The translations under genes and the position numbers were made by a program. 64,000 nt of DNA from a virus: positions 58,592-122,591 of the IMG/VR virus record IMGVR_UViG_3300025131_011243; one strand, given 5' to 3'. This document shows positions 32,468-55,640 of this stretch, one piece after another (position 1 is the stretch's first letter; every line of letters starts with the position of its first letter). The notes below the pieces were generated by a model. The model worked only from the letters and a program-made list of their open reading frames with translations, had not been told where the DNA came from and ran no database searches.

Positions 32468-32510
32468 GCCGGTCTCCCAATTGTTTATAGGATATCGAGA
32501 GAAAAGGCAC

Positions 32511-33573: not shown

Positions 33574-34776
33574 ATGGCGATCATCCAGAGCATCATTGAT
33601 GACGACCTGTATAAACTGTCGATGCAGGCGGCTATCATGGCCCTTTACCCCAGAAACAAGGTTCGGTACAGGCTGTTCCTTAGAGACGACGTAGAATTCC
33701 CGGATGGGTTCGCAGCAGCACTCAGAGAAGAAGTCAACGCCATTGCGAAACTCGCATTGACTGATGATGAGAAACATTTCCTTTCTTTGTCATGTCCGTA
33801 TTTTCCGCCGCCGTACCTTGACTTCCTTCATGGGTACAGGCACGATCCCAACGAAGTCAAGATTTCCCAGAGCGATGGAAAACTCTCGGTAGAAATCGAA
33901 GGCTACTGGTATCGAACGGTTCTTTGGGAAGTTAAGCTCATGGCTTTGATCAGCGAGTTGTATTTTGATCTCATTGGCGGCGACATCAAAATGACAAGGA
34001 ATTGCATTGACGGACCCGGCTTCTGGAAAGAACGTGCCGAAGACAAAGGTACGATCATTTACGACAACCAACTTCGTACCGCCGAGTTCGGTTCCCGCCG
34101 ACGACGCTCATTCCGATGCCAAGACATTGTTGTCGAGAATCTCAAAAAGATGTCTGGAGAATACTTGATCGGGACATCCAATGTTTATCTCGCAATGAAG
34201 CATGGGTTGAAAGCCATTGGAACGCAGGCTCATGAATGGTACATGTTCCATGCCGCTAAGTACGGCGTCCTCATGGCTAACTCAATGGGCATGGGGAAAT
34301 GGGTAGACTTCTACCACGGAAGCTTGGGCATCGCTCTGCCCGATACATTCACGACTCAAGAATTCTTGCGAGTCTTTGATGGGTTCTACGCCAAGCTGTT
34401 CGATGGGACTCGACAGGATTCCGGAGATCCATATGGATACGGCGAGACTATGGTGAAACACTACGAAGGTTTGGGTATCGATCCCATTACCAAATCTGTC
34501 GTTTTCAGCGATGGCCTGACCCTTACTGAAGCGATTCAGATCAAAAACGTTTTCCACGATCAGGTCAAAGATTCCTACGGTATCGGAACCCATTTTTCCA
34601 ATGACGTTGGCGTCGTTCCTTTGAACATGGTGATCAAAATGGTTGGCATACATACCAATGGAGTCTGGGTTCCGACTTGCAAACTCAGCGATACCCCAGG
34701 CAAGCATACTGGTGACGAAGACACGATCAAACTCTACAAAGAAGAGATCCGGAGGATGAATGGTGTCGCCACATGA
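33574..34776 (+). CDS. pncB: Nicotinate phosphoribosyltransferase
   Basis: A 400-aa enzyme converting nicotinate and PRPP to nicotinate mononucleotide, the first committed step of Preiss-Handler NAD salvage. It matches the E. coli-type PncB layout: FGSRRRR, GTQAHEW with the phosphorylated His near residue 220, LGIALPDTFTT, RQDSGDP, VVFSDGL, YGIGTHFSND, and the closing CKLSDTPGKH. Length equals that of the bacterial enzyme. An SD-like AGGAG lies upstream of 33574, and the stop overlaps nadE by 4 bp (ATGA), so the two are made in concert. Confidence 0.95.
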   Translation: MAIIQSIIDDDLYKLSMQAAIMALYPRNKVRYRLFLRDDVEFPDGFAAALREEVNAIAKLALTDDEKHFLSLSCPYFPPPYLDFLHGYRHDPNEVKISQSDGKLSVEIEGYWYRTVLWEVKLMALISELYFDLIGGDIKMTRNCIDGPGFWKERAEDKGTIIYDNQLRTAEFGSRRRRSFRCQDIVVENLKKMSGEYLIGTSNVYLAMKHGLKAIGTQAHEWYMFHAAKYGVLMANSMGMGKWVDFYHGSLGIALPDTFTTQEFLRVFDGFYAKLFDGTRQDSGDPYGYGETMVKHYEGLGIDPITKSVVFSDGLTLTEAIQIKNVFHDQVKDSYGIGTHFSNDVGVVPLNMVIKMVGIHTNGVWVPTCKLSDTPGKHTGDEDTIKLYKEEIRRMNGVAT

Positions 34777-36821
34777 AAATTGCCCTCATTCAGCTTGATG
34801 TCAAAGCTGGAGATCCTGCTCGCAACGTAAAGCGGATGATCAAGTATATCGATAAAGCCAAAGCAGGCGGCGTCGATATAGTTGCCTTCCCTGAACTTTG
34901 CATAGGCGGATATCTCGTAGGCGATATGTTCAAACACCCATCGTTCTGCCAAGACTTAATGAGCTACAACGAAGATATCCTCAAGGCATCCGAAGGTATC
35001 GGAGTCATTTGGGGAAACGTCTACATGGACGAAACCAAACGGGGAGAAGACGGCCAACCCATGCTTTTCAATGCCGCCTTCTTCGCCATGGATGGCAAGT
35101 ACGTTCCGATGGTTGGCGGATGCGACTTCCTTCCCGGCATCATGTACATCAAGACGCTTCTTCCTAATTATCGGTTCTTCGATGACAAGCGGTACTTCAC
35201 CAGTTCACTGACATACGCAAGACATGTAGGATGTAAACTTCCTTCGCTGATTAAACCTTTCTTGTTTGAAGCTCCATCTCAAAAGGGATTGGGACTCAAG
35301 CCATATCGAATCGGCTTACAGTTGTGCGAAGACCTTTGGTGCGCCGACTATCAAGAAAGAAGAGAGTCCATCAACCCTGCTGGCATATTAACCAAACAAG
35401 GCGTTGACCTTATCATCAATCTATCTGCCTCTCCTTGGACCATGGGCAAGAATGAAGCCAGGGATCGGCGGATCGCATTCATTGCTAAGGAATGCGGCGA
35501 TGAATTTGTACCCTACTACTATGTTAACGCAACTGGCGCACAGAACAACGGCAAGAACATCGTGACATTTGACGGAGGATCAACCGTCTATGGAAAAGAT
35601 GGAAAGCCACGATGCCTCGCATCTGCTAACTTTGAAGAGAGTGACCACACCTATGTTCATGGATGTTTGATCGAGAACTCAAAAAGACTCGACATCATCA
35701 ATACGCTTCCCGCTGTTCCAAGGGACAGCGACGAAACTTCGATTGAACAAAAGAAAAACGCTATCGTTCGAGGACTTCGTCACGTTCGCCATATGATGAG
35801 GTCCCCAAGCAATCCCAATGCGGTCCTCGGTATCAGCGGAGGTATCGACTCTGCCCTTGTTGCCTGCTTGCTTGTTGAAGCTTTTGGCAAAGATAAAGTC
35901 ATCGGCGTTAATATGCCGACTGTCAATAGTTCTGAAGAAACCAAAAACGTATTCAATACGTTGGTTGATAATCTGGGCATAGAACATGCGATCATTCCTA
36001 TTAACGAAGTTGTCAAACATGTAAATCTCGCCCTGCGCATTACAGTGAATTCCAGGATTACTCGTCATCAAAAAGATGGAGAGATCATTCCTCCCATTGT
36101 TCAAGAAAACATCCAAGCCAAGATCCGTTCGACAGACATCCTTTCTAATCTCACCCAATCGATTGGAGAGGACAGAAAACAACCCACGATCTTCACCTGT
36201 AACGGCAACAAGGTTGAGATCGCTTTGGGTTACGCTACTCTGTACGGAGACTGGGGTGGAGCGGTGGCCCCTATCGGAGATCTGACCAAAGCTGAAGTCT
36301 ACCAAATGGCTCGTCTGTATCAAGCTATACCTCATCAACTTCTTCCGGATGATATTTACAAATTCGGCAAGGGAAAGATTCAACCCAGCGCAGAATTACA
36401 ACCCCTGGCAAACAAACAAGTTGATCCCATTAAAGTAGGCTATCATTGTGCTATCATCAGAGAATTGACCAACTATACGATCTCAACGCCTGAGAATCTG
36501 GTTGAATGGTGGCTGGACGGAACGTTGCATGAAAAGCTGGATATCCCCATCGAGTTGATGAGGCTCCACATGGTTGATGATCCAGTCGTCTTTATTGAAG
36601 ATCTACAATGGTTAATGAAAAGAATCAATGGAGCGGTATACAAGAGAGTTCAAAGCCCTCCGATTATCATTACAAGCAAGACGGCTTATGGATATGATCG
36701 CCGGGAATCTATTCCTCTGGGAGTCCCGGTGACTCGCCGTTTTAAACAAGATCTGGTCCCAACTCTGATGGACTGGCCTCGCCGTTATCAGGAAGGTAAA
36801 GCTGAGGATCAGAATCAATAG
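34773..36821 (+). CDS. nadE: Glutamine-dependent NAD synthetase
   Basis: A 682-aa two-domain enzyme that amidates nicotinate adenine dinucleotide to NAD. The N-terminal nitrilase-like glutaminase has its triad: Glu41 (FPELCIGGY), Lys near 127 (KTLLPNY) and Cys near 185 (LQLCEDLW). The synthetase domain carries the PP-loop LGISGGIDSALVA near residues 351-362 and a long C-terminus. All catalytic residues are present. The final 80 bp overlap a convergent membrane-protein gene. The missing middle enzyme NadD is not in this window and could come from the host. Confidence 0.95.
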   Translation: MKIALIQLDVKAGDPARNVKRMIKYIDKAKAGGVDIVAFPELCIGGYLVGDMFKHPSFCQDLMSYNEDILKASEGIGVIWGNVYMDETKRGEDGQPMLFNAAFFAMDGKYVPMVGGCDFLPGIMYIKTLLPNYRFFDDKRYFTSSLTYARHVGCKLPSLIKPFLFEAPSQKGLGLKPYRIGLQLCEDLWCADYQERRESINPAGILTKQGVDLIINLSASPWTMGKNEARDRRIAFIAKECGDEFVPYYYVNATGAQNNGKNIVTFDGGSTVYGKDGKPRCLASANFEESDHTYVHGCLIENSKRLDIINTLPAVPRDSDETSIEQKKNAIVRGLRHVRHMMRSPSNPNAVLGISGGIDSALVACLLVEAFGKDKVIGVNMPTVNSSEETKNVFNTLVDNLGIEHAIIPINEVVKHVNLALRITVNSRITRHQKDGEIIPPIVQENIQAKIRSTDILSNLTQSIGEDRKQPTIFTCNGNKVEIALGYATLYGDWGGAVAPIGDLTKAEVYQMARLYQAIPHQLLPDDIYKFGKGKIQPSAELQPLANKQVDPIKVGYHCAIIRELTNYTISTPENLVEWWLDGTLHEKLDIPIELMRLHMVDDPVVFIEDLQWLMKRINGAVYKRVQSPPIIITSKTAYGYDRRESIPLGVPVTRRFKQDLVPTLMDWPRRYQEGKAEDQNQ

Positions 36822-37125
36822 CGTTGAGAAACTCAACTATTGTCCAAGTGACTCCTAAAACAGCAAATCCGGATATGGGCCACAAGAAATAGAAGCCCGA
36901 ACAGGCATATAGGATAGAATCGACTATCAGAGCCGCCCAGAATGAGGAACAGACCGTACAATCCAGCATTCTGGGCAATTTCCAATGAAGCTTATGAAGG
37001 GCTATTTTAAGCCTTAGTTTTATAGGTCGAATAGGCCATTCAGAGCCCTTCTCAGCGATTGCTATAGCTAACCCATAAGATGCCATCATGGATATGATGA
37101 AATAGATTAGGAGCGATCCTAGCAT
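36742..37125 (-). CDS. Small membrane protein (DUF1360-like)
   Basis: A 127-aa protein with an N-terminal transmembrane helix (LLIYFIISMMASYGLAIAIA), a cytoplasmic basic loop, a C-x2-C motif (DCTVCSSFW) and a further hydrophobic hairpin (ILYACSGFYFLWPISGFAVLGVTW). This resembles phage and Bacillus DUF1360 proteins. It overlaps the nadE 3' end by 80 bp on the opposite strand. It is spaced 2 bp from the 103-aa gene upstream. Role unknown; possibly envelope-directed. Confidence 0.7.
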   Translation of the reverse strand: MLGSLLIYFIISMMASYGLAIAIAEKGSEWPIRPIKLRLKIALHKLHWKLPRMLDCTVCSSFWAALIVDSILYACSGFYFLWPISGFAVLGVTWTIVEFLNAIDSDPQLYLPDNGEASPSELGPDLV

Positions 37126-37127
37126 GG

Positions 37128-37439
37128 TTACAGCCCCTTCTCCTTAAGCCTCTTCTGTACAACCTCCCATTTAGAGGGCTTTTTCTTATCTTCTTTCCTC
37201 TGAGACGACAATTTCTGGTATCGATGCATGGCGAGCATCAATCTAGTAGCGTCTTCTCCTGTCCCGCCATTTTCAAAAGGAAATAACTCAAACCACCCCC
37301 AAGATTCCAAAAACTTGTACAACTCAAGTTCGTCTTTATCCAACCTATGAGCGGGAGAAGAAGCCGCCAGGCACATGCGATGGTACACGCCTTCTGCCCA
37401 GTCTTTGACGATGTTTTTTAGTTTATCTTTCTTTGCCAT
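37128..37439 (-). CDS. Hypothetical basic helical protein
   Basis: A 103-aa Lys-rich protein with predicted helices (LKNIVKDWAEGVYHRMCLAA; DELELYKFLESWGWFELFPF) and a basic end (KKKPSKWEVVQKRLKEKGL). No family recognised. It is cotranscribed with the membrane protein and faces the lysis-type hydrolase divergently across a 75-bp gap. Confidence 0.6.
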   Translation of the reverse strand: MAKKDKLKNIVKDWAEGVYHRMCLAASSPAHRLDKDELELYKFLESWGWFELFPFENGGTGEDATRLMLAMHRYQKLSSQRKEDKKKPSKWEVVQKRLKEKGL

Positions 37440-37514
37440 GTCTACACCTAACTTTATCGGAGTTCAAGCGTCAAAAACTAAAGGATAAAAACGTTCACAA
37501 TCGAAAGTACAGGT

Positions 37515-38219
37515 ATGAATTGGTATAAACAGGCTAGTTTCGACGAATTCGTGCAAGCTCTTAAATTCTTAGGGATTGCGGTTCCTGCAACGCTTTTAAT
37601 GGTTGTTCTTACCCAAAGTTTTGGAGGCAAAGAAGAAGCTATACAAGCTATCCAAAAAGATCCACAAGCCGCTGCCCAAGTAGTCCAACAAGAAATGCAA
37701 CAAAATCCCCCCACCCAAATCGAACAAAAACTGATTCAGCCTGAACCTAAGCCACAGCCAGAACCTAAAAAAAAGATCTCTGAAGATGAGAACTTTGTAG
37801 CCAGAGTAATCTTTTCTGAAGCTGCCGGAACTAGCAAAAAAGAAAGAGAACTAGTTGCCGCCAGTATGATCAACAGAATGAACCACCCAGGATTCGGTAG
37901 AGGAAAACTCTCTTCCATGAGAGATGTAGCTGAACAACCCAAAGCTTACTCAGCCATTAATGGCAACAAGCTGTGGTATAGATCTGAACATCCAGAACAA
38001 TTCGAGTATCAACCAGAAATTGATGCTTGGGAACACTCTTTACAACTCGCTACCGGAGGAGCTAGACCTTTGAATGGTCCTTCTGGTAATCCCATTGTAT
38101 ATTACCATGACGAAAGAGTCGATAAGCCTAGTAGTTGGGACAACAGTTGGTGGAATGCGAACTTGGAAATAGAAACGGATCAGTTCAAATTCTACAGTGT
38201 AACTCCTAATAGGAATTGA
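37515..38219 (+). CDS. Cell wall hydrolase, SleB (Hydrolase_2) family, membrane anchored
   Basis: A 234-aa protein. Residues 1-36 hold an N-terminal hydrophobic anchor (FLGIAVPATLLMVVLTQSF); 37-85 form a Gln/Pro/Lys-rich linker. Residues 92-225 are the SleB/CwlJ-like domain: VARVIFSEAAGTSKKERELVAASMINRM, AYSAINGNKLW, IVYYHDERV. The family cleaves peptidoglycan in spore cortex or cell wall. As the only envelope-degrading enzyme here it is a candidate endolysin with signal-arrest-like export, or a virion lysin. It is one of only four plus-strand genes. Confidence 0.85.
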   Translation: MNWYKQASFDEFVQALKFLGIAVPATLLMVVLTQSFGGKEEAIQAIQKDPQAAAQVVQQEMQQNPPTQIEQKLIQPEPKPQPEPKKKISEDENFVARVIFSEAAGTSKKERELVAASMINRMNHPGFGRGKLSSMRDVAEQPKAYSAINGNKLWYRSEHPEQFEYQPEIDAWEHSLQLATGGARPLNGPSGNPIVYYHDERVDKPSSWDNSWWNANLEIETDQFKFYSVTPNRN

Positions 38220-38226
38220 ATTCAAC

Positions 38227-38478
38227 ATGCCATGTGGATGTCGTCGCAAAAGCATAAAACAAAAAAACAAAACCATCAAAGCCAAAAAGCAAGAGGTGGA
38301 GTTTGAGACCCTGAAGCAACGCTTCAACGCCTGCAATGCTTGCAAATATGCGACAGACAAACATTACAAAGTAAAGACACTAACCAGGCGAAGCAAATGT
38401 AGAAAAACAGGTGAATTGATTTCCGTCAAAGCCAAAAAGAGGAAGCAGTCCTGTCCAATAAACAAGTGGCCTAAGTAA
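38227..38478 (+). CDS. Small Cys/Lys-rich protein
   Basis: An 83-aa basic protein starting MPCGCRRKS with a second cysteine group (CNACKYATDKHYK ... SKCRKTG ... QSCPINKWP). The spacing suggests a zinc-binding fold of the small phage type. It follows the cell wall hydrolase by 7 bp on the plus strand and probably shares its transcript. Function unknown. Confidence 0.7.
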   Translation: MPCGCRRKSIKQKNKTIKAKKQEVEFETLKQRFNACNACKYATDKHYKVKTLTRRSKCRKTGELISVKAKKRKQSCPINKWPK

Positions 38479-38538
38479 CTCGTTGCCAAATAGATTTCTT
38501 TTCAGACGTCGAGGTATGGCTCTGGGGACGGCGTGAAC

Positions 38539-39174
38539 TTAACTGTTTCTTTTTTGACCATTCTCCCCACTTTGTTCATTTCTACTCTCCAAATCGAGAT
38601 GAGGCTCTCTTGCGATTATGTTTCCGACATCCACAATAGCCCCCAAAGATGTTGTTATTGTTCCGTTCTTATCACATTTTTCGTATTTTGCGTTCAGAAC
38701 CTTTCCAGAACAATCGATAATAGGGGACCAATCCCCATCAACCTTTAGCATGTAGTCCGCAAGTCTTTTTACTTCTACATCAACAGAGTATTTTATTCTT
38801 TTGGCCTTATCGAAGACTCTAATAGCCACTCCGGTCTTTATCTTGACATTAGCTTCTCTGATCTTTGCTAATACGTCGTATAGATTCTTGACCCCAAACG
38901 CCTCTATGCCATCTTTTGCCAAAAATGCAAAACCTATATCATCTCCAGGCACCAAGTACTCCATAGACGACAAGGCACTTTCAGGTTTTCCAAAGCTGTC
39001 GTTGTCCCAGTATTTTACATTTTCTACTACATGTTTTATAAAAGATATGCTGGTGAGATCAAGGCAGATACTTTCCTTGTATCCTATGCGGATCATGTGG
39101 CTTTCCATTTTCGCCACACCATGATGATGAGAAGTTTTTGGAGGATTAGATGGATCAAAAACGTATAATGCCAT
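38539..39174 (-). CDS. Hypothetical protein
   Basis: A 211-aa protein with alternating hydrophobic and charged segments (SICLDLTSISFIKHVVENVKYW; GIEAFGVKNLYDVLAKIREANVKIKTGVAIRVFDKAKR) suggesting an alpha/beta fold, and a charged Gln/Asn-rich C-terminus. It is the last gene of a four-gene operon (54-aa, PanD, ACP-like, this one) with 2 bp to the ACP-like gene. No family recognised. Confidence 0.65.
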   Translation of the reverse strand: MALYVFDPSNPPKTSHHHGVAKMESHMIRIGYKESICLDLTSISFIKHVVENVKYWDNDSFGKPESALSSMEYLVPGDDIGFAFLAKDGIEAFGVKNLYDVLAKIREANVKIKTGVAIRVFDKAKRIKYSVDVEVKRLADYMLKVDGDWSPIIDCSGKVLNAKYEKCDKNGTITTSLGAIVDVGNIIAREPHLDLESRNEQSGENGQKRNS

Positions 39175-39176
39175 AT

Positions 39177-39596
39177 TTACAGATCCAAGAAATTGAATCG
39201 GCTCATTTCTTCTGGTTCCTCTTCCTTTTCAGGAAGAGATTTGTTAGAGCCTTTTTTGCGAGGTGATTTTTTACGAGGCGTTTTAGCTCCAGCCTTTCCG
39301 GCTGCCTTCTTTTTCTTTTTCGTTATCTTTTTCACGCTCTGATCTTTAGCTTCCGAATAGATAAGTCCAACGAGAGACCCAACCGTCGTCGAGTTCGCCC
39401 CGCAAAACATAAGTATGTCGTTATCGCTCTCTTCCAGAGTAACGCCTATCTGATCTTCTAGTTTCATAATTAATTCAAGCACGTTTACGTCGTCAATCAA
39501 CTCTGCAACCTTCATATCAACGTCTGGCATGATACCAGAATAGTCTCGTATACAAAGCTTGATGATTTGCTCGATTTGCCTATAGAGTGGATTCAT
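39177..39596 (-). CDS. Acyl-carrier-protein-like protein lacking the pantetheine serine
   Basis: A 139-aa protein. Residues 1-85 follow the ACP fold: helix 1, then LIDDVNVLELIMKLEDQIGVTL aligned with the ACP DSL..VELVMALEEEF segment, and TTVGSLVGLI as the last helix. The Ser that carries phosphopantetheine is Asp36 here. Residues 90-139 are a basic tail (KKKKKAAGKAGAKTPRKKSPRKKG) ending EEMSRFNFLDL. It overlaps PanD by one base, so a link to pantothenate/CoA is tempting, but without the Ser it is more likely a binding or structural relative. The ACP call rests on pattern only. Confidence 0.55.
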   Translation of the reverse strand: MNPLYRQIEQIIKLCIRDYSGIMPDVDMKVAELIDDVNVLELIMKLEDQIGVTLEESDNDILMFCGANSTTVGSLVGLIYSEAKDQSVKKITKKKKKAAGKAGAKTPRKKSPRKKGSNKSLPEKEEEPEEMSRFNFLDL

Positions 39597-39946
39597 TATT
39601 CCTCACCTATCTCGTTCCCGTCTTCCAGCACAACGATTGTAGGATCTGTATTTCCTGCTTCTTTCCATGGAACCAAAGCGAATGCCATGATGATAACATG
39701 CTGACCGATCTCAACCTTTTGAGCGGCAGCACCATTGATGAAGATTGCGGTTTGGTCGCCCTCCGGTATGACGTAAGTTTCAAACCTTTCACCGGTTTCT
39801 ATGACTGCTACAAGAACTTTTTGATATGGTAGAATGTGGGAAGCATCCAGTATGGCTTGTCCTATACCTATGCTTCCTTCATAGTACGGAAATATTCCGG
39901 AGACCTCTGCTCCATGAATTTTGCTCTTGAGCATCTCTACTTGCAT
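39596..39946 (-). CDS. panD: Aspartate 1-decarboxylase
   Basis: A 116-aa enzyme making beta-alanine for pantothenate and CoA. Numbering matches E. coli PanD: Lys9 and His11, self-cleavage site Gly24-Ser25 (YYEGSIGI) giving the pyruvoyl group, and Arg54, Thr57 and Tyr58 (GERFETYVI). NGAAA follows at 71-75, then VEIGQHVIIMAFALV. All known catalytic residues are present, so it should self-process and be active. It sits between a 54-aa gene and the ACP-like gene in one operon. PanD in a phage is rare in my experience. Confidence 0.9.
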   Translation of the reverse strand: MQVEMLKSKIHGAEVSGIFPYYEGSIGIGQAILDASHILPYQKVLVAVIETGERFETYVIPEGDQTAIFINGAAAQKVEIGQHVIIMAFALVPWKEAGNTDPTIVVLEDGNEIGEE

Positions 39947-39979
39947 GGCTATATCCTTACGGCTTGCCAGCTTCTTCGT

Positions 39980-40144
39980 CTATATTTGACACTTTTCTGC
40001 TACGACATCCTGTTCTTCTTCAGACATGTCGCCCCAACAATCGTCCATGCGATCTCTTATTTCATCGCCAGAGGGATCGTCGTCCGATTTGTTGTCCAAC
40101 AACTTGAAAAGTCGTATGTATTCTTTTTGATTATCATTCATCAT
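39980..40144 (-). CDS. Small acidic phage protein (54 aa)
   Basis: ATG at 40144 has an AAGGGA site 4-5 nt upstream and a clear stop at 39982-39980. The protein starts MMNDNQKEYIRLFKLL and continues with a 'DDPSGDEIRDRMDDCWGDMSEEE' -like acidic helical pattern that I recognise as common among small phage proteins of unknown role. It leads the PanD operon, 33 bp before panD. Confidence 0.7.
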   Translation of the reverse strand: MMNDNQKEYIRLFKLLDNKSDDDPSGDEIRDRMDDCWGDMSEEEQDVVAEKCQI

Positions 40145-40164
40145 AAATTCCCTTAGTTTTAAAG

Positions 40165-40255
40165 CGGAGACGCTGGGATTCGAACCCAGGAAGGAGCAAT
40201 TCAGCCCCTTAATTGATTAGCAGTCAATCGCCTTCAACCACTCGGCCACATCTCC
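40165..40255 (-). tRNA. tRNA-Ser(GCU)
   Basis: A 91-nt class II tRNA. Acceptor GGAGATG pairs with CGTCTCC and the discriminator is G. Anticodon stem ATTGA/TCAAT holds loop CTGCTAA, so the anticodon is GCT. Long variable arm and TTCGAAT T-loop present. First of the serine cluster. Confidence 0.95.
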
Positions 40256-40304
40256 TAATTTACCTATCGTCATGAAATGAATTTTACCAGACATGTAAAC
40301 ACAA

Positions 40305-40395
40305 AGGAAGGTAAGGGAATCGAACCCTCGGACCCCATTTCTAGGACCACTGGTTTTCCAAACCAGCACGACTAACCAACATCCGTCTACCTTCC
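40305..40395 (-). tRNA. tRNA-Ser(GGA)
   Basis: A 91-nt class II tRNA. Acceptor GGAAGGT/ACCTTCC; anticodon stem CTGGT/ACCAG with loop TTGGAAA, anticodon GGA; long variable arm; T-loop TTCGATT. The discriminator is T instead of the usual G of serine tRNAs, which may reduce charging by SerRS. Confidence 0.93.
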
Positions 40396-40403
40396 AAGTA
40401 GAA

Positions 40404-40497
40404 AGGAAGGTAAGGGGATCGAACCCTTGTAACCCCTTGTTCAGGGGTTAACTGGTTTTCGAAACCAGCGCAACAAACCAACATTTGCCTACCTTCC
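40404..40497 (-). tRNA. tRNA-Ser(CGA)
   Basis: A 94-nt class II tRNA nearly identical in acceptor and anticodon stems to the GGA tRNA. Loop TTCGAAA gives anticodon CGA; variable arm is longer (TTAACCCCTGAACAAGGGGTTA). The discriminator is again T. The similarity suggests tandem duplication followed by anticodon change. Confidence 0.93.
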
Positions 40498-40515
40498 AAG
40501 TTTTTCCAAACAAGA

Positions 40516-40572
40516 GGAGAGTATGGGATTCGTTACGGTTGCTTCGTTTTCCGAAGCTGTTCATAACTCTCC
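40516..40572. ncRNA. 57-nt tRNA-like hairpin RNA or tRNA remnant without D-arm
   Basis: A perfect 7-bp terminal helix (GGAGAGT/ACTCTCC) encloses a 5-bp hairpin with a 7-nt loop (GCTTC..GAAGC) and a sequence resembling half of a T-arm (CGAATCCC). There is no D-arm and no paired T-stem. Read on the plus strand the loop is GTTTTCC, with T at position 33 and TTT as anticodon; on the minus strand the loop is GGAAAAC. It lies between serine tRNAs and could be a decayed tRNA or a small structured RNA. Confidence 0.5.
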
Positions 40573-40576
40573 TAAG

Positions 40577-40663
40577 CGGAAGGGACAGGAATCGAACCTG
40601 CATCACGCTTCTAACGTGAAACCGTTTTCAAGACGGCTTAGCCCGCCAATAGCAAGCCCTTCC
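40577..40663 (-). tRNA. tRNA-Ser(UGA)
   Basis: An 87-nt class II tRNA. Acceptor GGAAGGG/CCCTTCC, discriminator G; anticodon stem GCCGT/ACGGT with loop CTTGAAA, anticodon TGA; variable arm hairpin TTCACG/CGTGAT; T-arm GCAGG TTCGATT CCTGT. With GCU, GGA and CGA this completes the set for all six serine codons. Confidence 0.94.
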
Positions 40664-40748
40664 TAAATATCTGTCGGGAATCCACGCTACTTGAGACCAT
40701 CTGCCCTTTTTTCAAAAAGCATTGTTTGTAGTAAATTTCCTTGGCCAC

Positions 40749-41075
40749 CTACTGCCCCCATCTCATTGCCAACATTCCTGCTACTACCAAACCCAAACCT
40801 GTCCATTGCCATCCGCTGAACTTGTCTCCCGCTCCCAAATAAAGCATAGTCAACGGAAAGACAAGAAAGATTATACTATCAAAAAGAAGCCCGTCAAACA
40901 ACTGCCTCTTTGAAATAATAGATATCAACACCCACCATTGACCTAAGGCTCCCCAAAGGAAAGCCGTCCATGCCCAGAGATGTCCGCCGTCCTGATTCAG
41001 CCTAAAGGTGAAGTAGTAGTAGACGGAATACCAAACAGCTATGCATGGGACCCACCATAAATAATGATACCACAT
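40749..41075 (-). CDS. Small multi-pass membrane protein
   Basis: A 108-aa, Trp-rich protein with four hydrophobic segments (VPCIAVWYSVYYYFTF; TAFLWGALGQWWVLISII; LLFDSIIFLVFPLTMLYL; WTGLGLVVAGMLAMRW). Topology and ending resemble small multidrug-resistance or DMT-type transporters, but length and sequence do not settle it. It lies alone inside the serine tRNA cluster. Function unknown. Confidence 0.6.
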   Translation of the reverse strand: MWYHYLWWVPCIAVWYSVYYYFTFRLNQDGGHLWAWTAFLWGALGQWWVLISIISKRQLFDGLLFDSIIFLVFPLTMLYLGAGDKFSGWQWTGLGLVVAGMLAMRWGQ

Positions 41076-41112
41076 TTTGTTTCATCTCCGCCTCCTGTCG
41101 CTGCTTCAAAAA

Positions 41113-41156
41113 GGAAGGTAAGGGAATCAAACCCTTGGACCCCATTTCTAGGACCA
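41113..41156 (-). pseudogene. 3' fragment of tRNA-Ser(GGA)
   Basis: 44 nt identical at 42 positions to the 3' third of the tRNA-Ser(GGA) gene (40306-40349): variable arm, T-arm and acceptor strand. The T-loop is changed (TTTGATT). No D or anticodon arm precedes it. It is a partial duplication or recombination scar about 8 nt before the plus-strand A/T gap, in the same orientation as the tRNAs. Confidence 0.85.
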
Positions 41157-41176
41157 TTCGCTTCCTGTTATTTAAG

Positions 41177-41268
41177 CGGATAGGGAGGGATTCGAACCCT
41201 CAGATCATCAAAGACGACCCCCTGATTAGCAATCAGGTGTCCCGCACCAGTGGGAATCCAGCCTATCC
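41177..41268 (-). tRNA. tRNA-Ser(GCU), second copy
   Basis: A 92-nt class II tRNA. Acceptor GGATAGG/CCTATCC, discriminator G; anticodon stem CCTGA/TCAGG with loop TTGCTAA, anticodon GCT; variable arm hairpin GGTCGTC/GATGATC; canonical T-arm. Its sequence differs widely from the first GCU tRNA, so it is an independent acquisition. Confidence 0.93.
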
Positions 41269-41329
41269 AAATTTACTTTAGTAAAAACTCCATCTTTTAT
41301 CATTTTACCTTCATCACTACCTTCCGTTA

Positions 41330-41344
41330 TGGCCCGAAGGGCCA
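41330..41344. terminator. Hairpin TGGCCC-GAA-GGGCCA downstream of the vWA gene
   Basis: A 6-bp GC-rich perfect hairpin with a 3-nt loop. On the plus strand it is followed by CTTTTTG, as in an intrinsic terminator. On the minus strand, where the vWA gene ends 17 bp away, no T run follows. It may act mainly on rightward or antisense transcripts. Confidence 0.4.
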
Positions 41345-41360
41345 CTTTTTGTTTATTCAA

Positions 41361-42158
41361 TTACTTGTCGTCATCTTCCTTTTTATTATCAACTACCGCC
41401 TTAAGTTTGTCAAGTGTTGCTTGAGCAACATCTTGGTCATCGTCCTGATCGTCGTCAAGCAGATGGTCGATCTTCGATGCCGCAATATCTGCTCCGGCAT
41501 CATACAGGGCAGCTTTCGTACCGACATATGACCCTCTGGACATGGATATATCGGCGAATGCCCGCCGAGTACCGACCTGATCCCCCTTATAGGCCATGGT
41601 ATTGCCTTGCGGGATATTCAGTCGATCAGCCGTAACAACAACATCGTGATTCGCCCCGATATAAGTAAACGTCCAGGTTCCATCCTGTTGCAGGTGCTTG
41701 AGAAGATCCGCAACCTGATTGCCATTGTACTCTCTCGAAGCATTTTCTTCGCCATCTGTCAGGATAGTAACCATCACTTCAACGTTGATTTTCTCGTCCT
41801 GAAGTTCTTCGTCGATCTCTGCTTTCAGACGATTACAGCTTTGCCCAATGGCATCGTAAAGAGCCGTCGTACTTTCGGGAGCATACTGTTCAGCGGTCAA
41901 TGGTTCGATGACATCGACGCCTTCTTTCCAGTGGATTGATTCGACCGAACTGTTGAAAGTTATCAGGCAATAACGATGCTCTTGATTCGGGTTCTCTCTT
42001 TGCAGTTTCTGGATGGTTGTGACATTTTCGTTAAAGCCATTGACTGTTGGCTTTATTACTGAACTCATCGAAGCACTACGATCTAATATGATCAGATGAT
42101 AGAACTTGATGGGGATGTTCTTGTCTCGCCCACCGACATCTAGGTTAGGGTTGGGCAT
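41361..42158 (-). CDS. von Willebrand factor A domain protein
   Basis: A 265-aa soluble vWA protein. The MIDAS motif DRSAS (residues 26-30, in HLIILDRSASM) is followed by the distal TLTDGEENA-type strand (VTILTDGEENASREY) and ESTTALYDAIG, giving DxSxS...T...D. The fold spans residues 18-195. The C-terminus is acidic (LLDDDQDDDQD). It is one of three vWA proteins in the window. Such proteins act as metal-dependent protein-binding adaptors. It is not tightly linked to the TROVE gene but lies in the same arm. Confidence 0.88.
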   Translation of the reverse strand: MPNPNLDVGGRDKNIPIKFYHLIILDRSASMSSVIKPTVNGFNENVTTIQKLQRENPNQEHRYCLITFNSSVESIHWKEGVDVIEPLTAEQYAPESTTALYDAIGQSCNRLKAEIDEELQDEKINVEVMVTILTDGEENASREYNGNQVADLLKHLQQDGTWTFTYIGANHDVVVTADRLNIPQGNTMAYKGDQVGTRRAFADISMSRGSYVGTKAALYDAGADIAASKIDHLLDDDQDDDQDVAQATLDKLKAVVDNKKEDDDK

Positions 42159-42216
42159 AATTTGGTTCCTTTCTTATGGTAATTGTAAACTAAACACAAA
42201 CACTGAACCAAAAGAC

Positions 42217-48592: not shown

Positions 48593-48620
48593 TTATCGGC
48601 TTTTTCTTGAAATTCCTTTA
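48593..48620 (-). promoter_or_regulatory. FliA-type promoter for the abnormal tRNA array/Ubl/TROVE transcript
   Basis: GCCGATAA (48600-48593) is a perfect FliA -10 and TAAA (48620-48617) sits 16 nt upstream (consensus 15). It lies between the end of the 102-aa gene (48637) and the permuted tRNA-Leu. The phage encodes a FliA-like sigma factor, so this is its best candidate target in the window. Confidence 0.7.
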
Positions 48621-48636
48621 ATGAATTCCGCAAAGC

Positions 48637-48945
48637 TCAGTTTTTCTTACCTCTCGCAGCTTCAGAGGGCATCTTACCATATCTTTTATGGCTGTCAACC
48701 CCTAAATCATCGTCGTCAAAATCATCTCCGTCATCCCAAACTTCTCCGTTCTCATCTTTGTAACGCTCGTCTTTCATCCAAGTTATCACAACAGGATCTT
48801 CGCCTCGATAAAACTTTTCCTGATGCTGCCCGTCATGATCCTGGGGGAGAGGACATCGGACGGTAGCAACCCCATCGCCAAAGTCGTCTCCGATATAAAG
48901 GTGAGCATTACATTCGCCTTCAACATCTTCTGGTTTTCCAAACAT
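48637..48945 (-). CDS. Hypothetical acidic protein
   Basis: A 102-aa protein with a Cys pair (CNAHLYIGDDFGDGVATVRCPLP), His/Asp patches (HDGQHQEKF) and a run of Asp (DDGDDFDDDDLG) before a basic end. It may bind a metal. It lies between tRNA-Leu(UAA) and the FliA-type promoter. No family recognised. Confidence 0.6.
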   Translation of the reverse strand: MFGKPEDVEGECNAHLYIGDDFGDGVATVRCPLPQDHDGQHQEKFYRGEDPVVITWMKDERYKDENGEVWDDGDDFDDDDLGVDSHKRYGKMPSEAARGKKN

Positions 48946-48964
48946 TCGTTTCTCCTAAGTTAAG

Positions 48965-49046
48965 TGCGGAAGGAGGGACTTGAACCCTCAAGCCTTACGG
49001 CACTGGATTTTAAATCCAGCGTGTTTGCCAATTTCACCACTCCCGC
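48965..49046 (-). tRNA. tRNA-Leu(UAA)
   Basis: An 82-nt ordinary class II tRNA: acceptor GCGGGAG/CTTCCGC (one G-T), discriminator A, anticodon stem CTGGA/TCCAG with loop TTTAAAA (TAA), long variable arm, T-loop TTCAAGT. It shares its anticodon with the permuted tRNA-Leu 450 bp away. Confidence 0.94.
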
Positions 49047-49047
49047 T

Positions 49048-49518
49048 CTATTCATTCCAATCGCTGTCGATCATATCGTAAGGATCGAAACCCATTCTTT
49101 TCAACTTGTTCCAAAAGCGAATGTTATCTCGTTCTCTTTGTTCCTGTTTCTCCTCTTCCTTTCTAGCCCATTCTTCTCGATGCAATTTAATCTCTTCCAG
49201 CCTTGCCCTGCGACATTGGCTACACATGTTCCATAGGTATCTGCATCGCACATGAGGGTCAAGCTTCCGTCTTGCATGTTCGGTAAACTTGCTGCTATCC
49301 TTTTTGTTTGCCGTTTTCTTTACCTTGTACTGAGTCTTGCGATGCTTCTTCCAAGACCTTACGATGGTCGTTGAAACGTCGTCCCATGCGTCAGGCAACA
49401 TTCGGGGAGTCCTTTTCCCTCGAATCCTGTAACGCATTTCAGCATCTTCCATGTCCTCCAAGGACCCGTAGTAGCCACGACGTTCATTGGTCGTTGCGGG
49501 GGATCTGAAGTAACCCAT
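49048..49518 (-). CDS. Hypothetical basic protein
   Basis: A 156-aa protein rich in Arg/Lys/Glu. It has a Tyr/Arg-rich start (MGYFRSPATTNERRGYYGS), a Cys triplet (CRYLWNMCSQCRR) and a long charged helix (IKLHREEWARKEEEKQEQRERDNIRFWNKLKRMGF). It may bind nucleic acid. Its stop is 2 bp from the tRNA-Leu(UAA) 5' end. No family recognised. Confidence 0.6.
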   Translation of the reverse strand: MGYFRSPATTNERRGYYGSLEDMEDAEMRYRIRGKRTPRMLPDAWDDVSTTIVRSWKKHRKTQYKVKKTANKKDSSKFTEHARRKLDPHVRCRYLWNMCSQCRRARLEEIKLHREEWARKEEEKQEQRERDNIRFWNKLKRMGFDPYDMIDSDWNE

Positions 49519-49597
49519 TTTCGTATCTCCTATGCAAAGTTAAACACTTCACATAGGAGATACCGGCTTTGTCCTTTTCATATCTGTATCCTTTCAA

Positions 49598-49683
49598 TAC
49601 GGGCGAGAGGGGTCGAACCTCCATAGGATTTTACTCCCGCCAGATCCTAAGTCTGGTGCGTCTGCCAGTTCCGCCACGCCCGC
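49598..49683 (-). tRNA. tRNA-Leu(UAG)
   Basis: An 86-nt class II tRNA: acceptor GCGGGCG/CGCCCGT, discriminator A, anticodon stem CCAGA/TCTGG with loop CTTAGGA (TAG), long variable arm, T-loop TTCGACC. Ordinary structure; reads CUA. Confidence 0.94.
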
Positions 49684-49692
49684 TCTTTCAAA

Positions 49693-49778
49693 TACGGATA
49701 AGAGGAGTCGAACCTCCATGGGATTTTACTCCCGCTAGATTCTGAGTCTAGTGCGTCTGCCTATTCCGCCACATCCGC
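49693..49778 (-). tRNA. tRNA-Leu(CAG)
   Basis: An 86-nt class II tRNA closely similar to the neighbouring UAG tRNA: acceptor GCGGATG/TATCCGT, discriminator A, anticodon stem CTAGA/TCTAG with loop CTCAGAA (CAG). Tandem duplication with anticodon change is likely. The 5' end overlaps the HNH gene end by about 18 nt. Confidence 0.94.
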
Positions 49779-50270
49779 TCTTAAGTCATTTTTGTTCTTG
49801 TTCCTTCCTCCATATGTAGGAGTTTGACTATGACAATTTGGACATAGTAATCTAAGATTCCTTATGCGATTGTCTGTCCTGTCTCCGTTCTCGTGGTCCA
49901 AATGCATTGAAAGAGGTTCTCCATTCCACTCTGTTCCCATTCCGCATTTAGAACATTTTTCTTCCAGTTTGCCACATTCGATTAACCTTTTCTTAAGGTG
50001 GCAATTGTTGTATACGACTCCCTTTTTTAGGAGATCCCTTAACTCTCTCTTACTAGGTGGGCTCCATGTTTTATCAAGCTTTCTTCTAGATGCCTGCCCT
50101 AAAAAATGACTCGTATCTATCTTGAAGTTTTCAATCTTGCCCTTCAAGTGAGAATGATTCCCCCCTGAAGGAGCAAGCCCTATCTTCTCCAAAACCTGGC
50201 TAATGGAGAAAGAAGTAGCTACTGCCTCCTCCAGATCTTGGATAGAATACCTTTTCGACGTATGCTTCAT
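49761..50270 (-). CDS. HNH endonuclease in the tRNA-Leu cluster
   Basis: A 169-aa protein. An N-terminal helical part (IQDLEEAVATSFSISQVLEKIGLAPSGGNHSHLKGKI) resembles a DNA-binding motif of phage HNH enzymes. The core has CSKCGMG, LSMHLDHENGDRTDNRIRNLRLLCPNCHSQ (HNH with zinc cysteines), and YGGRNKNK. The stop lies inside the tRNA-Leu(CAG) gene, so the enzyme may be a mobile element targeting tRNA genes. A GGAGG site precedes the start. Confidence 0.9.
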   Translation of the reverse strand: MKHTSKRYSIQDLEEAVATSFSISQVLEKIGLAPSGGNHSHLKGKIENFKIDTSHFLGQASRRKLDKTWSPPSKRELRDLLKKGVVYNNCHLKKRLIECGKLEEKCSKCGMGTEWNGEPLSMHLDHENGDRTDNRIRNLRLLCPNCHSQTPTYGGRNKNKNDLRADVAE

Positions 50271-50364
50271 ATTGCACCTCCACTATTAGGTACAATATCT
50301 TATAGTAAACCTCCTTCACAATTTACCAATGAGGTTTGCCAGTTTCCGTCACCTGGGCTTTATT

Positions 50365-50538
50365 TTACCATGTTTGCCTCACGGATGCATCCTTTTTCTT
50401 GCCAAATTCTTTTTCTTCTGTCGAATTCAAAGGGATTCTATGATCCCGCAGGATGTCAAAGAGATTTCGTTTACCTTGCCGGTCTTCGGCTCTCTTACGG
50501 TCATAGTCGTCTCCTTCGTCGTTTGCTTGAGTTTTCAT
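50365..50538 (-). CDS. Small charged protein (57 aa)
   Basis: ATG at 50538 has an AAAGGAG site 7 nt upstream. The protein starts MKTQANDEGDDYDRKRAEDRQ and is highly charged with no hydrophobic core. It begins 18 bp after the 3' end of the Asp-like tRNA. A longer frame would extend into that tRNA and is not credible. Function unknown. Confidence 0.55.
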   Translation of the reverse strand: MKTQANDEGDDYDRKRAEDRQGKRNLFDILRDHRIPLNSTEEKEFGKKKDASVRQTW

Positions 50539-50555
50539 AGCAGTTCTCCTTTTAA

Positions 50556-50640
50556 TGCACCGGGTTGGATTCGAACCAACGTAGACTTTCGCCAACAGTT
50601 TGACAGACTGCTGCAACTCTCCAACTTTGCCGCACGCTCT
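50556..50640 (-). tRNA. tRNA-Asp(GUC)-like gene with unresolved 5' acceptor
   Basis: T-arm GTTGG TTCGAAT CCAAC, acceptor CCGGTGC and discriminator A are clear. Anticodon stem GCAGT/ACTGT holds loop CTGTCAA (GTC), and D-arm CGGC/GTTG has GG in the loop. The expected 5' strand GCACCGG is absent next to the D-arm; instead GAGAGCG is found. It may be interrupted like the tRNAs at 48 kb or decayed. I could not place the missing strand within 100 nt on either side. Confidence 0.55.
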
Positions 50641-50697
50641 CAGTTATTACAGCCTACCGGGCTCACCACCTGCCCAACTCGCCTATTAAGTTTCAAA

Positions 50698-50780
50698 TAC
50701 CCCTGACAGGAGTCGAACCTGTACGCCTTAATCGGCAGTAGGTTTTGAACCTACCGTGTCTGCCGTTCCACCACAGGGGC
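50698..50780 (-). tRNA. tRNA-Leu(CAA)
   Basis: An 83-nt class II tRNA: acceptor GCCCCTG/CAGGGGT (one G-T), discriminator A, anticodon stem GTAGG/CCTAC with loop TTCAAAA (CAA), long variable arm, T-loop TTCGACT. Confidence 0.94.
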
Positions 50781-50791
50781 TCTGTTTCAAA

Positions 50792-50875
50792 AGGCCGCTG
50801 AGGGATTCGAACCCTCGATGGCTTAACGCCAGCGGATTTGCAATCCGCTCCCTTTGTCCGCTCGGGCAAACGGCC
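50792..50875 (-). tRNA. Class II tRNA with Cys anticodon (GCA)
   Basis: An 84-nt tRNA with acceptor GGCCGTT/AGCGGCC, anticodon stem GCGGA/TCCGC and loop TTGCAAA (GCA). The discriminator is T, the identity base of tRNA-Cys. Unlike ordinary tRNA-Cys it has a long variable arm (TGGCGTTAAGCCA), and its D-arm (CCCGAGCGGACAAAGGG) looks like that of tRNA-Tyr/Leu/Ser. It may derive from tRNA-Tyr by anticodon change. Confidence 0.88.
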
Positions 50876-51080
50876 ATACAGTATTCAGTTTTTGGTCGTA
50901 AGTATATGTTAGAGCGTACAGCATAAGCTGTCGCTCAAAATATACCATAGAGAGGTGCTAAGCAAGAAGCCAGAATGTTCGATTCTCTTAGTCATAACAG
51001 AAGTATCCTATCATACCATCGTCACATTTCAAGCCTTTTCTGAAGAATCCTGCAATAATTTTCGGCATAAAAAGGCCCCT
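50876..51080. other. Leader region of the 49-51 kb tRNA transcript
   Basis: 205 bp without a gene. On the minus strand it contains an imperfect hairpin (GAGCGACAGC/GCTGTACGCTC around 50912-50937) and TATATT preceded 15 nt upstream by TTGCTT, a weak promoter candidate. Nothing else was recognised. Confidence 0.4.
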
Positions 51081-51875
51081 CTAGTTAGTAAATCCGCCGC
51101 CAGTTGCAACCTGACTGAACGATTGCGAACCTTGGCTCGCCTGAACAGCAGACTGCGAAAAGACTTGGCATGCCTTTCTGATCGAAGAAGGATCACTTTT
51201 GGGAGTAAGAATCCATTCGTCACGGACTCCCATCTCGCCAAAAACCTGTTTGAAGTCAACCGATCCGTCGTCAACTCCCATCGCTGCGATGATATGGTTC
51301 TCGCTTTGCAGCATATCATCAACAATCGCCTTGACTTTCTTAGCCGTCATGACGTACGAATGTTGGTCTGCGCCATCGCTGATGATCAAGCTGATCGAGC
51401 GAGCGAAAACGCCGTTGTCCTTGAACTCTTGAGACTTGGCCAAGATCGTTGCGAGAAACGCAGCCGTTTGATCGTACAAGGGAGTACCTTGATTCGGATC
51501 ATAGTTGATGGTCGTCAGTTCCGAGACTGCATCGATCAGTCCGAACGGATTGATAATCTCGCCGTTGAGCAATTGAGTGAAGGCCAAGATATTATCCCGC
51601 TGCTTCGAATCCCTCAACGCTTGAATGACGAGATTATGTCCGTCCCGAACAGCTTGAGTATTGCCTTGGACAAATCGAATCGAACCACTATCGTCAGGCA
51701 TAATGCCTAAGAGGACAACTTCGCTCGCTTCGATATCGTCAACATCGACACCCATTGCTTCCTGAATCTGTTCGCCAACATCGAGGATTTCGATGGACTC
51801 CGCTCCCTCGGCAGACAGATCTCCTTGATCTTGGGCCGATTCGAAAAGCGTACCAATCGTAGCTGAAGTACTCAT
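51081..51875 (-). CDS. vWA-like protein of a TerY-P-type set
   Basis: A 264-aa protein; the ATG at 51875 follows an AAGGAG site and the preceding gene's stop at 51904. A vWA-type core reads VLLGIMPDDSGSIRF (degenerate MIDAS DDSGS), a central helix region, GTPLYDQTAAFLATIL and SLIISDGADQHSY. The C-terminus is Ser/Gln/Gly-rich. It lies with a kinase and a PP2C phosphatase in the same operon, the arrangement described for TerY-P triads. Likely a metal-dependent adaptor regulated by phosphorylation. Confidence 0.78.
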   Translation of the reverse strand: MSTSATIGTLFESAQDQGDLSAEGAESIEILDVGEQIQEAMGVDVDDIEASEVVLLGIMPDDSGSIRFVQGNTQAVRDGHNLVIQALRDSKQRDNILAFTQLLNGEIINPFGLIDAVSELTTINYDPNQGTPLYDQTAAFLATILAKSQEFKDNGVFARSISLIISDGADQHSYVMTAKKVKAIVDDMLQSENHIIAAMGVDDGSVDFKQVFGEMGVRDEWILTPKSDPSSIRKACQVFSQSAVQASQGSQSFSQVATGGGFTN

Positions 51876-51903
51876 TTTTGCAGACTCCTTTTCGATTCTT
51901 TGA

Positions 51904-52971
51904 TTAATCGATATCGACGCCGGGCCAATCAACGATGGGAGTGGTAGATTTAACGACATGCATCCCTGCGTTGACAAAACGTTCGAACGCTTCATCGGCC
52001 TGCGGAGTTGCATCGTAGATCGGAGGATCTCCCGGATACTGTCCAGGGATCACAACCGGCGACGTACAATCTTCAAGCAGATAGATCTTCTTCACCAACG
52101 ACGGGTCCTGTTGATTGATCTCATCCAGCAGATCGTTGATAAACCATGCGAAGCAGTGACTCTTGGCTTCTCCCAACCCGATGATGATATCGTGGTCGAG
52201 AATAAGCTTGAGGAATCCAACCTTCTTCTGGGCGATGGATGTCCCATCCTGATCAGCCAAAACATCAGGCTGAATCGGAGAGTAATTCTCCGTCAGCGGA
52301 TTCCCGCCCTTGATCTGAGTCTTGCGTTCATTGTGTCGGGCGACGGTATGGAAGAAGATCGCTTCATGGAGCAGGGGAATCAACGCATGTTCCAACCCGC
52401 CGAGAATGGCATGATAGGGCCATGGCGTCAATGCATATCGACGGTAAGCCGATGATCCCGTATTGAGGGTTTTCGAGTAATGCCTCAGATACGTTTCGAG
52501 ATACATATAGTTGCCGCCCTTGATGGTATGGGCAACGGCTGGATTGACTTTCCATTTGCCGCTTTGAATGTCAGCGTCCTCGATGGGAAGTCCCGGCGTA
52601 GGATGGTTGCCGTCATCATCAACGAGAAAGATTTGATGGAAGATCTGGATGACAGTATGCGTATCCATCGTCGGAGCAATGGATGTAATCAGGTGCATGT
52701 TTTCATAGATGAACTTACATGCTCTGACGCAGTCGTCATACGCACCGGCAACCGGAAGACCGCCCTGAGGATGGGCGAAGGTCAACTGAACGTCAATAGG
52801 AATGACGCAGATTTTGGTTTTGTCGATAGCGGCAGACTTGATGCCATGTTGTTTGGCCCAATCTTCCGCTTGCGGAGCCAGGTTTTCGTAGTCAACGAAC
52901 CAGAGATCGCCAACTCGACTTTCATCGAAATGGGCGGGAATCGGGAGCGTTGAAGCGGCTACTGAAGACAT
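51904..52971 (-). CDS. Nicotinamidase/isochorismatase-superfamily cysteine hydrolase
   Basis: A 355-aa protein, longer than PncA (about 200). Catalytic triad candidates: Asp60 (VIPIDVQLTF), Lys221 (QIKGGNPLTENYS) and Cys273 (GEAKSHCFAW). Metal-site-like MDTHTVIQIFH (103-111) matches the nicotinamidase DxH..H pattern, and WPYHAILGG matches the WPxHC loop. Insertions lie between these. It would convert nicotinamide to nicotinate, the substrate of the phage PncB. Alternatively it acts on another amide, since it is embedded in the kinase/PP2C/vWA operon. Confidence 0.75.
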   Translation of the reverse strand: MSSVAASTLPIPAHFDESRVGDLWFVDYENLAPQAEDWAKQHGIKSAAIDKTKICVIPIDVQLTFAHPQGGLPVAGAYDDCVRACKFIYENMHLITSIAPTMDTHTVIQIFHQIFLVDDDGNHPTPGLPIEDADIQSGKWKVNPAVAHTIKGGNYMYLETYLRHYSKTLNTGSSAYRRYALTPWPYHAILGGLEHALIPLLHEAIFFHTVARHNERKTQIKGGNPLTENYSPIQPDVLADQDGTSIAQKKVGFLKLILDHDIIIGLGEAKSHCFAWFINDLLDEINQQDPSLVKKIYLLEDCTSPVVIPGQYPGDPPIYDATPQADEAFERFVNAGMHVVKSTTPIVDWPGVDID

Positions 52972-55582: not shown

Positions 55583-55640
55583 CGTTATCCTATCTATAAA
55601 GCCCTCGCATTGTACAATATTTGGATTGAAATTCAAGGGA

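What the first reader, a model, noticed from the sequence alone, without database searches (positions are those of the whole stretch)
33574..52971. Near-complete Preiss-Handler NAD pathway split across the phage genome
A nicotinamidase-like hydrolase (51904-52971), PncB and NadE are all present with catalytic residues; only NadD is missing. Phages restoring NAD after NAD-depleting defences (NARP1 and NARP2) have been described with Nampt-based routes. This would be a deamidating route instead. A macro domain protein and SpoT-like hydrolase nearby fit a wider counter-defence against nucleotide signals.
Basis: partly seen in the sequence, partly recalled or inferred. Interest (0 to 1): 0.82.

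Follow-up and report, generated by a model that had tools for sequence, protein, structure and literature searches.

The report
Phage nicotinamidase with kinase-phosphatase operon
This large phage carries its own enzymes for turning nicotinamide back into the cell's key cofactor NAD, and the first of them, a very divergent nicotinamidase, belongs to a so far unremarked phage operon that also encodes a protein kinase, a matching phosphatase and a VWA adaptor protein.

Summary
PncB (33574-34776) and glutamine-dependent NadE (34773-36821) are clear. The 355-aa protein (51904-52971, minus) has no Pfam or NCBIfam match alone, but a profile of its relatives hits solved nicotinamidases (Pnc1, E 2e-18). 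Its AlphaFold model (pLDDT 92) matches nicotinamidases first. The D-K-C triad, the metal ligands D/H/H and two pocket aromatics are invariant in 34 relatives. NadD is absent from this 122.6-kb record, which is a fragment; relatives encode NadD in the same operon. Nine distinct phages have a one-strand locus with nicotinamidase, PRTase, NadD and NadE.

The nicotinamidase sits in a tight PP2C / Ser-Thr kinase / nicotinamidase / VWA operon. Of 80 phage loci chosen by the kinase, 74 carry the nicotinamidase; of 54 nicotinamidase clusters, 45-47 carry each partner, all on one strand. PncB and NadE lie within 10 kb far more often than chance. NrtR and NADAR recur nearby.

Deamidating NAD synthesis in jumbo phages is already published (Li et al. 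2024, from memory), so the pathway is not new. The divergent nicotinamidase family and its near-constant phospho-signalling partners appear to be. Relief from NADase defences is plausible but untested.

The parts
51904..52971 (-). Divergent nicotinamidase (355 aa): D60-K221-C273 triad, D103/H105/H187 (and H112) metal site, F65 and W184 pocket, N-terminal extension (1-50) and an insert between H112 and W184
52984..54804 (-). Ser/Thr protein kinase (606 aa); kinase domain about 1-290, C-terminal all-beta part modelled at low confidence; its stop codon abuts the nicotinamidase's Shine-Dalgarno
   Evidence: no Pfam hit alone; G22-G23, K36, D146-N148-N151, D163 conserved in 15 relatives; Foldseek top hits are kinases; start overlaps PP2C stop
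54797..55636 (-). PP2C-type protein phosphatase
   Evidence: PF13672 1.1e-19
51081..51875 (-). VWA-domain protein, MIDAS residues intact (DDSGS, T, DG), conserved Ser-containing C-terminal tail; Shine-Dalgarno upstream of ATG at 51875
   Evidence: family alignment, Shine-Dalgarno; Pfam alone gives nothing
33574..34776 (+). PncB, nicotinate phosphoribosyltransferase
34773..36821 (+). NadE, glutamine-dependent NAD synthetase, ATGA overlap with pncB
31952..32560 (-). Macro-domain protein; membership in this pathway not shown
   Evidence: PF01661 7.7e-21
42217..42747 (-). SpoT/MESH1-like HD hydrolase by motif only; membership in this pathway not shown
   Evidence: no Pfam match

Best explanation
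The phage encodes a nicotinamide-salvage route to NAD: nicotinamide to nicotinate by the divergent metal-dependent nicotinamidase (51904-52971), nicotinate to NaMN by PncB, NaMN to NaAD by NadD (from the host, or from the unseen part of this genome), and NaAD to NAD by NadE. NADase defences release nicotinamide, so the route would refill NAD during infection; it would equally serve the phage's general NAD demand. The nicotinamidase step is under the control of, or physically tied to, a reversible phosphorylation module: kinase, PP2C and a VWA adaptor whose conserved Ser-containing tail is a candidate substrate. Shown: genes, predicted folds, catalytic and metal residues, operon and co-occurrence. 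Inferred: enzymatic activity, direction of use, phosphorylation target, counter-defence benefit.
For: Family profile against PDB: top hits are nicotinamidases. Model pLDDT 92.2; the top 15 chains by VIA are nicotinamidases (Z 18.8-22.3), other isochorismatase-superfamily members follow at 18.4 and below. D60, F65, D103, H105, W184, H187, K221, C273 invariant in 34 diverse members, aligned to Pnc1 D8/F13/D51/H53/W91/H94/K122/C167. Genomic linkage: PncB within 10 kb in 11 of 20 records (1.9 expected), NadE in 14 of 26 (2.3 expected), P<5e-5 by within-record permutation. Nine distinct phages with nicotinamidase, PRTase, NadD, NadE, VWA, PP2C and kinase in one one-strand locus; NadD identity by NCBIfam for the loci tested. 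NrtR beside nicotinamidase-PncB-NadE in Andreprevotia lacus (L185) and a Variovorax plasmid (L005). Near-constant triad: 74 of 80 kinase-selected loci hold the nicotinamidase; 45-47 of 54 clusters hold each partner on the same strand.
Against: No activity data. Alone, the window protein has no database hit. It has Ala where most relatives have Cys after H187, and the D103-H112 spacing is one residue longer than in canonical PncA (from memory). In this record PncB-NadE and the nicotinamidase are about 17 kb apart on opposite strands, and NadD is not seen. In 34 of 54 clusters neither PncB nor NadE lies within the stretch examined (up to 10 kb each side), so those would lean on more distant or host genes. 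Nothing directly links the kinase to NAD enzymes beyond gene order.
Confidence: 0.72

Rival explanations
1. The hydrolase is an isochorismatase-superfamily enzyme of another substrate (for example a modified-base or signal-molecule amide) that belongs to a kinase/PP2C/VWA conflict module; PncB and NadE are only frequent fellow passengers in large phages.
For: The triad is a more constant partner (45-47 of 54) than PncB or NadE (15-16 of 54). The family has a long insert and fails the PncA equivalog cut-off.
Against: Nicotinamidase-type metal ligands and pocket aromatics are invariant. Fold ranking puts nicotinamidases above other superfamily members. Within-record clustering with PncB and NadE, NrtR next to it, and nicotinamidase-PncB-NadE runs in cultured bacteria without the triad (L138, L143, L185).
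Confidence: 0.15
2. The route exists only to feed the phage's own large NAD demand (NAD-dependent ligases, sirtuins, ADP-ribosyltransferases, replication of a big genome), with no role against defence.
For: Jumbo-phage NAD genes are also read this way (PMC13282480). The window also holds PanD and an RNR, i.e. general cofactor and nucleotide supply.
Against: NADAR and Nudix genes recur beside the module in relatives, which PMC9503650 ties to ADP-ribose conflict; not decisive.
Confidence: 0.4
3. The four-gene minus-strand module is a TerY-P-like stress or defence system of the phage against competitors, and the hydrolase's removal of nicotinamide is its signal step.
For: VWA + PP2C + Ser/Thr kinase is the composition of the TerY-P triad (PMC4978471). 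74 of 80 kinase loci include the hydrolase.
Against: None of the DNA-processing or secretion partners of TerY-P were seen recurring beside it. No strong PADLOC match. TerY orthology was not tested. Does not explain NadD, NadE and PncB inside the same one-strand run.
Confidence: 0.2

Closest known systems
Jumbo-phage Preiss-Handler/salvage NAD synthesis (Li et al. 2024, Microbiome, PMC11662467; not held, content from memory)
   Same: PncB/NadD/NadE-type deamidating synthesis in large phages
   Different: As far as I recall, no divergent nicotinamidase family and no kinase/PP2C/VWA partners are described there; could not be checked
NARP1 (Adps + Namat) and NARP2 (Nampt + Nmnat)
   Same: Phage-encoded NAD rebuilding from nicotinamide after NADase action
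   Different: Here nicotinamide is first deamidated and four steps are used; no adenylyltransferase in this record and the PRTase is NAPRTase, not Nampt
Cellular nicotinamidases Pnc1/PncA
   Same: Fold, triad, metal ligands, pocket aromatics
   Different: Long insert between H112 and W184, N-terminal extension, below the PncA model cut-off
TerY-P triad (VWA, Ser/Thr kinase, PP2C; PMC4978471)
   Same: The same three kinds of protein in one operon
   Different: Hydrolase and NAD-synthesis genes in the operon; no WxG, FtsK or McrB-type partners noticed; orthology not tested
ADP-ribosylglycohydrolase neighbourhoods with NrtR-like Nudix regulators and vWA (PMC9503650)
   Same: NrtR-type regulator and VWA near NAD/ADPr enzymes
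   Different: No PP2C and no protein kinase mentioned there; no nicotinamidase

Membership tests
Nicotinamidase (PncA/Pnc1) | Isochorismatase-like fold closest to nicotinamidases | tested here: met
   pLDDT 92.2; 9u8m Z 22.3, Pnc1 22.1, 3r2j 21.6, 2wt9 21.5
Nicotinamidase (PncA/Pnc1) | Asp-Lys-Cys catalytic triad | tested here: met
   D60, K221, C273 invariant in 34 members; aligned to Pnc1 D8/K122/C167
Nicotinamidase (PncA/Pnc1) | Metal site D-x-H plus His, not general in the superfamily | tested here: met
   D103, H105, H187 invariant, H112 at least 90%
Nicotinamidase (PncA/Pnc1) | Reaches NCBI's PncA equivalog cut-off (a practical test, not a biochemical definition) | tested here: not met
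   window protein no hit; relatives 22.8-50.1 bits against 174; of the 14 control genomes only one exceeds that cut-off, so it is a narrow model
Nicotinamidase (PncA/Pnc1) | Hydrolyses nicotinamide | not testable with these tools
   needs an enzyme assay
Preiss-Handler pathway | PncB | tested here: met
   TIGR01514 397.5 bits over 269.6
Preiss-Handler pathway | NadE | tested here: met
   TIGR00552 102 bits over 63.65
Preiss-Handler pathway | NadD | tested here: inconclusive
   no PF01467 in the 122.6-kb record, but the record may be a fragment; present in relatives' operons
NARP2 | Nampt plus NMN adenylyltransferase | tested here: inconclusive
   the PRTase is NAPRTase; no adenylyltransferase in this fragment
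NARP1 | Adps and Namat | not tested
   no Adps or Namat profile was searched
TerY-P triad | VWA, PP2C and Ser/Thr kinase in one operon | tested here: met
TerY-P triad | VWA orthologous to TerY | not tested
   no TerY profile compared

The most novel reading that the evidence does not exclude
Large phages run a nicotinamide-responsive, phosphorylation-controlled NAD-restoration operon: the VWA protein joins the divergent nicotinamidase to a kinase/PP2C switch that turns deamidating NAD synthesis on when NADase defences release nicotinamide.
Probability: 0.3. Interest if true: 0.8.

Novelty: new variant of a known kind. Interest (0 to 1): 0.62.

Why it matters
It adds the first step (nicotinamide to nicotinate) to phage NAD rebuilding with an enzyme that standard annotation cannot see, so the number of phages able to reuse nicotinamide is probably undercounted. 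It also gives a phage protein kinase/phosphatase pair a concrete metabolic context: a constant partner gene and, in some phages, a full NAD pathway on the same strand. That makes the question of what phage kinase/PP2C/VWA modules do directly testable.

Tried and rejected
Single-sequence searches of the 355-aa protein in Pfam, NCBIfam and PHROGs, and of IMG/VR with a single sequence, gave nothing useful; the family alignment solved this. Many PF01467 hits in relatives were CoaD rather than NadD and were removed (L101, L104, L108, L110). Long 'PNCB' hits of about 495 aa were suspected to be Nampt: the one from Bacillus sp. (L138) is a true NAPRTase, while those of L024, L077 and L160 are divergent, below every cut-off, and are called only 'PRTase' here. 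PADLOC gave no strong match. A check for loss of canonical PncA in bacteria carrying this family was inconclusive, because the model is too narrow. An RNR-selected control (PF04095 1 of 16 records, PF02540 1 of 16 and weak) is small and of shorter genomes, so the within-record permutation is the main control. The kinase's C-terminal half could not be identified (low pLDDT). Li et al. 2024 and the original NrtR paper are not in the library.

Full report
Observation. The window is bases 58,592-122,591 of a 122,591-bp virus record. PncB and NadE are unambiguous by curated models and are translationally coupled by an ATGA overlap. The 355-aa minus-strand protein has no relevant match in Pfam, NCBIfam or PHROGs on its own.

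Identity of the 355-aa protein. Translated searches found four relatives in phage records, three of them huge phages of 462-595 kb. A five-sequence profile already finds yeast nicotinamidase Pnc1 (4e-12) and other nicotinamidases in the PDB. That alignment retrieved 134 relatives in IMG/VR, 80 kept. With 34 members the PDB profile search returns Pnc1 at 2e-18, with further nicotinamidases as the next hits. The AlphaFold model has pLDDT 92.2. In the structural comparison ranks 1-15 are nicotinamidases (Z 18.8-22.3); biuret hydrolase, RutB, maleamate amidase and carbamoylsarcosine amidase come lower. D60, F65, D103, H105, W184, H187, K221 and C273 are invariant in all 34; in the alignment to Pnc1 they fall on D8, F13, D51, H53, W91, H94, K122 and C167 (the roles of those Pnc1 residues are from general knowledge). 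The metal ligands are what separate nicotinamidases from most of the superfamily. Differences: an N-terminal extension, a long insert between H112 and W184, one extra residue between the metal His residues (relative to PncA, from memory), and Ala188 where most relatives have Cys.

On the minus strand the order is PP2C (55636-54797), kinase (54804-52984), nicotinamidase (52971-51904), VWA (51875-51081). The kinase start overlaps the PP2C stop (ATGGCTGA), the nicotinamidase has AAGGAGG at the kinase stop, and the VWA start has AAAGGAG. The kinase keeps its glycine loop, lysine, D-x-N-x-x-N loop and metal-binding Asp. The VWA keeps its MIDAS residues and has a conserved Ser-containing tail. The same four genes occur in three of the four phage records that first came up, LR745208, LR756500 and MT837596.

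How constant is it? Among 54 clusters of the nicotinamidase at 70% identity, VWA is present in 47, PP2C in 45 and kinase in 46, every one on the same strand. Reciprocally, 80 phage loci were chosen by the kinase alone: 74 have the nicotinamidase, 76 VWA, 77 PP2C. At least some of the six without it are cut off: the records behind L292 and L320 do hold a nicotinamidase further away (L029, L044).

Link to NAD synthesis. In 43 larger records PF04095 is found in 24, NAD synthase in 26 and a PF01467 nucleotidylyltransferase in 27; some of the latter are CoaD, others NadD. Within records, PncB lies within 10 kb of the nicotinamidase in 11 of 20 cases (1.9 expected) and NadE in 14 of 26 (2.3 expected); none of 20,000 random placements reached this. 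Nine distinct phages have nicotinamidase, a NAPRTase-type PRTase, NadD and NadE together with VWA, PP2C and kinase on one strand in one locus. In L020 the order is nicotinamidase-VWA-PncB-NadE-PP2C-NadD-kinase, with NadE/PP2C and PP2C/NadD ends overlapping. Cultured bacteria and a plasmid carry the family in plain salvage runs: nicotinamidase-PncB-NadE in Bacillus sp. V5-8f (L138), Peribacillus glennii (L143), Andreprevotia lacus (L185) and a Variovorax plasmid (L005), the last two with an NrtR-like gene beside it. NrtR, recognised by its NUDIX plus NrtR winged-helix domains, and NADAR recur near the module in other phages. In the window itself the two halves are about 17 kb apart and on opposite strands, so 'split' is right for this phage.

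Mechanism. The likeliest reading is nicotinamide to nicotinate (this enzyme), NaMN (PncB), NaAD (host NadD, or a phage NadD outside the fragment), NAD (NadE). It would reuse the nicotinamide that NADase defences release. The chemistry follows from the families; activity, timing and benefit are not shown. What the kinase/PP2C/VWA part does is open. Gene order says it acts with the nicotinamidase, most simply by switching or scaffolding it.

Comparison and novelty. NARP1 uses Adps and Namat (PMC12774641). Phage NadV/NadM/NadR routes are described in PMC9503650 and PMC7824862, which do not mention PncA or NadE by these names. Atu_ph07 has a nicotinate phosphoribosyltransferase and an annotated NAD synthetase, and a gut phage table lists a nicotinamidase (PMC10607447), so single parts are known. 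Li et al. 2024 (title seen in the reference lists of PMC13282480, PMC13037316 and PMC12931631; content from memory) reported complete Preiss-Handler or salvage sets in gut jumbo phages. The pathway is therefore a known kind. I found no report of the divergent nicotinamidase family or of its link to a kinase/PP2C/VWA module, within an open-access library only.

Verdict.

Noticed in passing
26637-30449 (-): Ribonucleotide reductase large subunit (1270 aa) interrupted by a Hint/LAGLIDADG intein.
   Followed up: no
39596-39946 (-): Aspartate decarboxylase PanD (PF02261 4.4e-33); CoaD occurs in some related phages, hinting at CoA as well as NAD supply.
   Followed up: no
43835-44901 (-): ThiF/E1-like protein beside an ORF with a JAB-like H-x-H motif (WIHTHPS...STTD): possible phage ubiquitin-like module.
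   Followed up: no
40164-50875: Eleven tRNA genes: five Ser, five Leu, one Cys. A strongly biased set within the region between PncB-NadE and the kinase operon.
   Followed up: no
41361-42158 (-): Second VWA protein about 9 kb from the first (PF00092 weak).
   Followed up: partly
7575-9848 (-): Portal-like protein (weak PF06074) with a C-terminal DUF559/MTES_1575 nuclease-like domain.
   Followed up: no
L008:7480-8976, L004:2255-3706, L010:3-368: A DUF2828 TROVE/VWA-like protein precedes the nicotinamidase in some phages.
   Followed up: partly
L062:15807-17385 and L020:15872-17249: NadD coded between PP2C and kinase with overlapping ends, i.e. a NAD enzyme inside the phospho-signalling pair.
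   Followed up: yes
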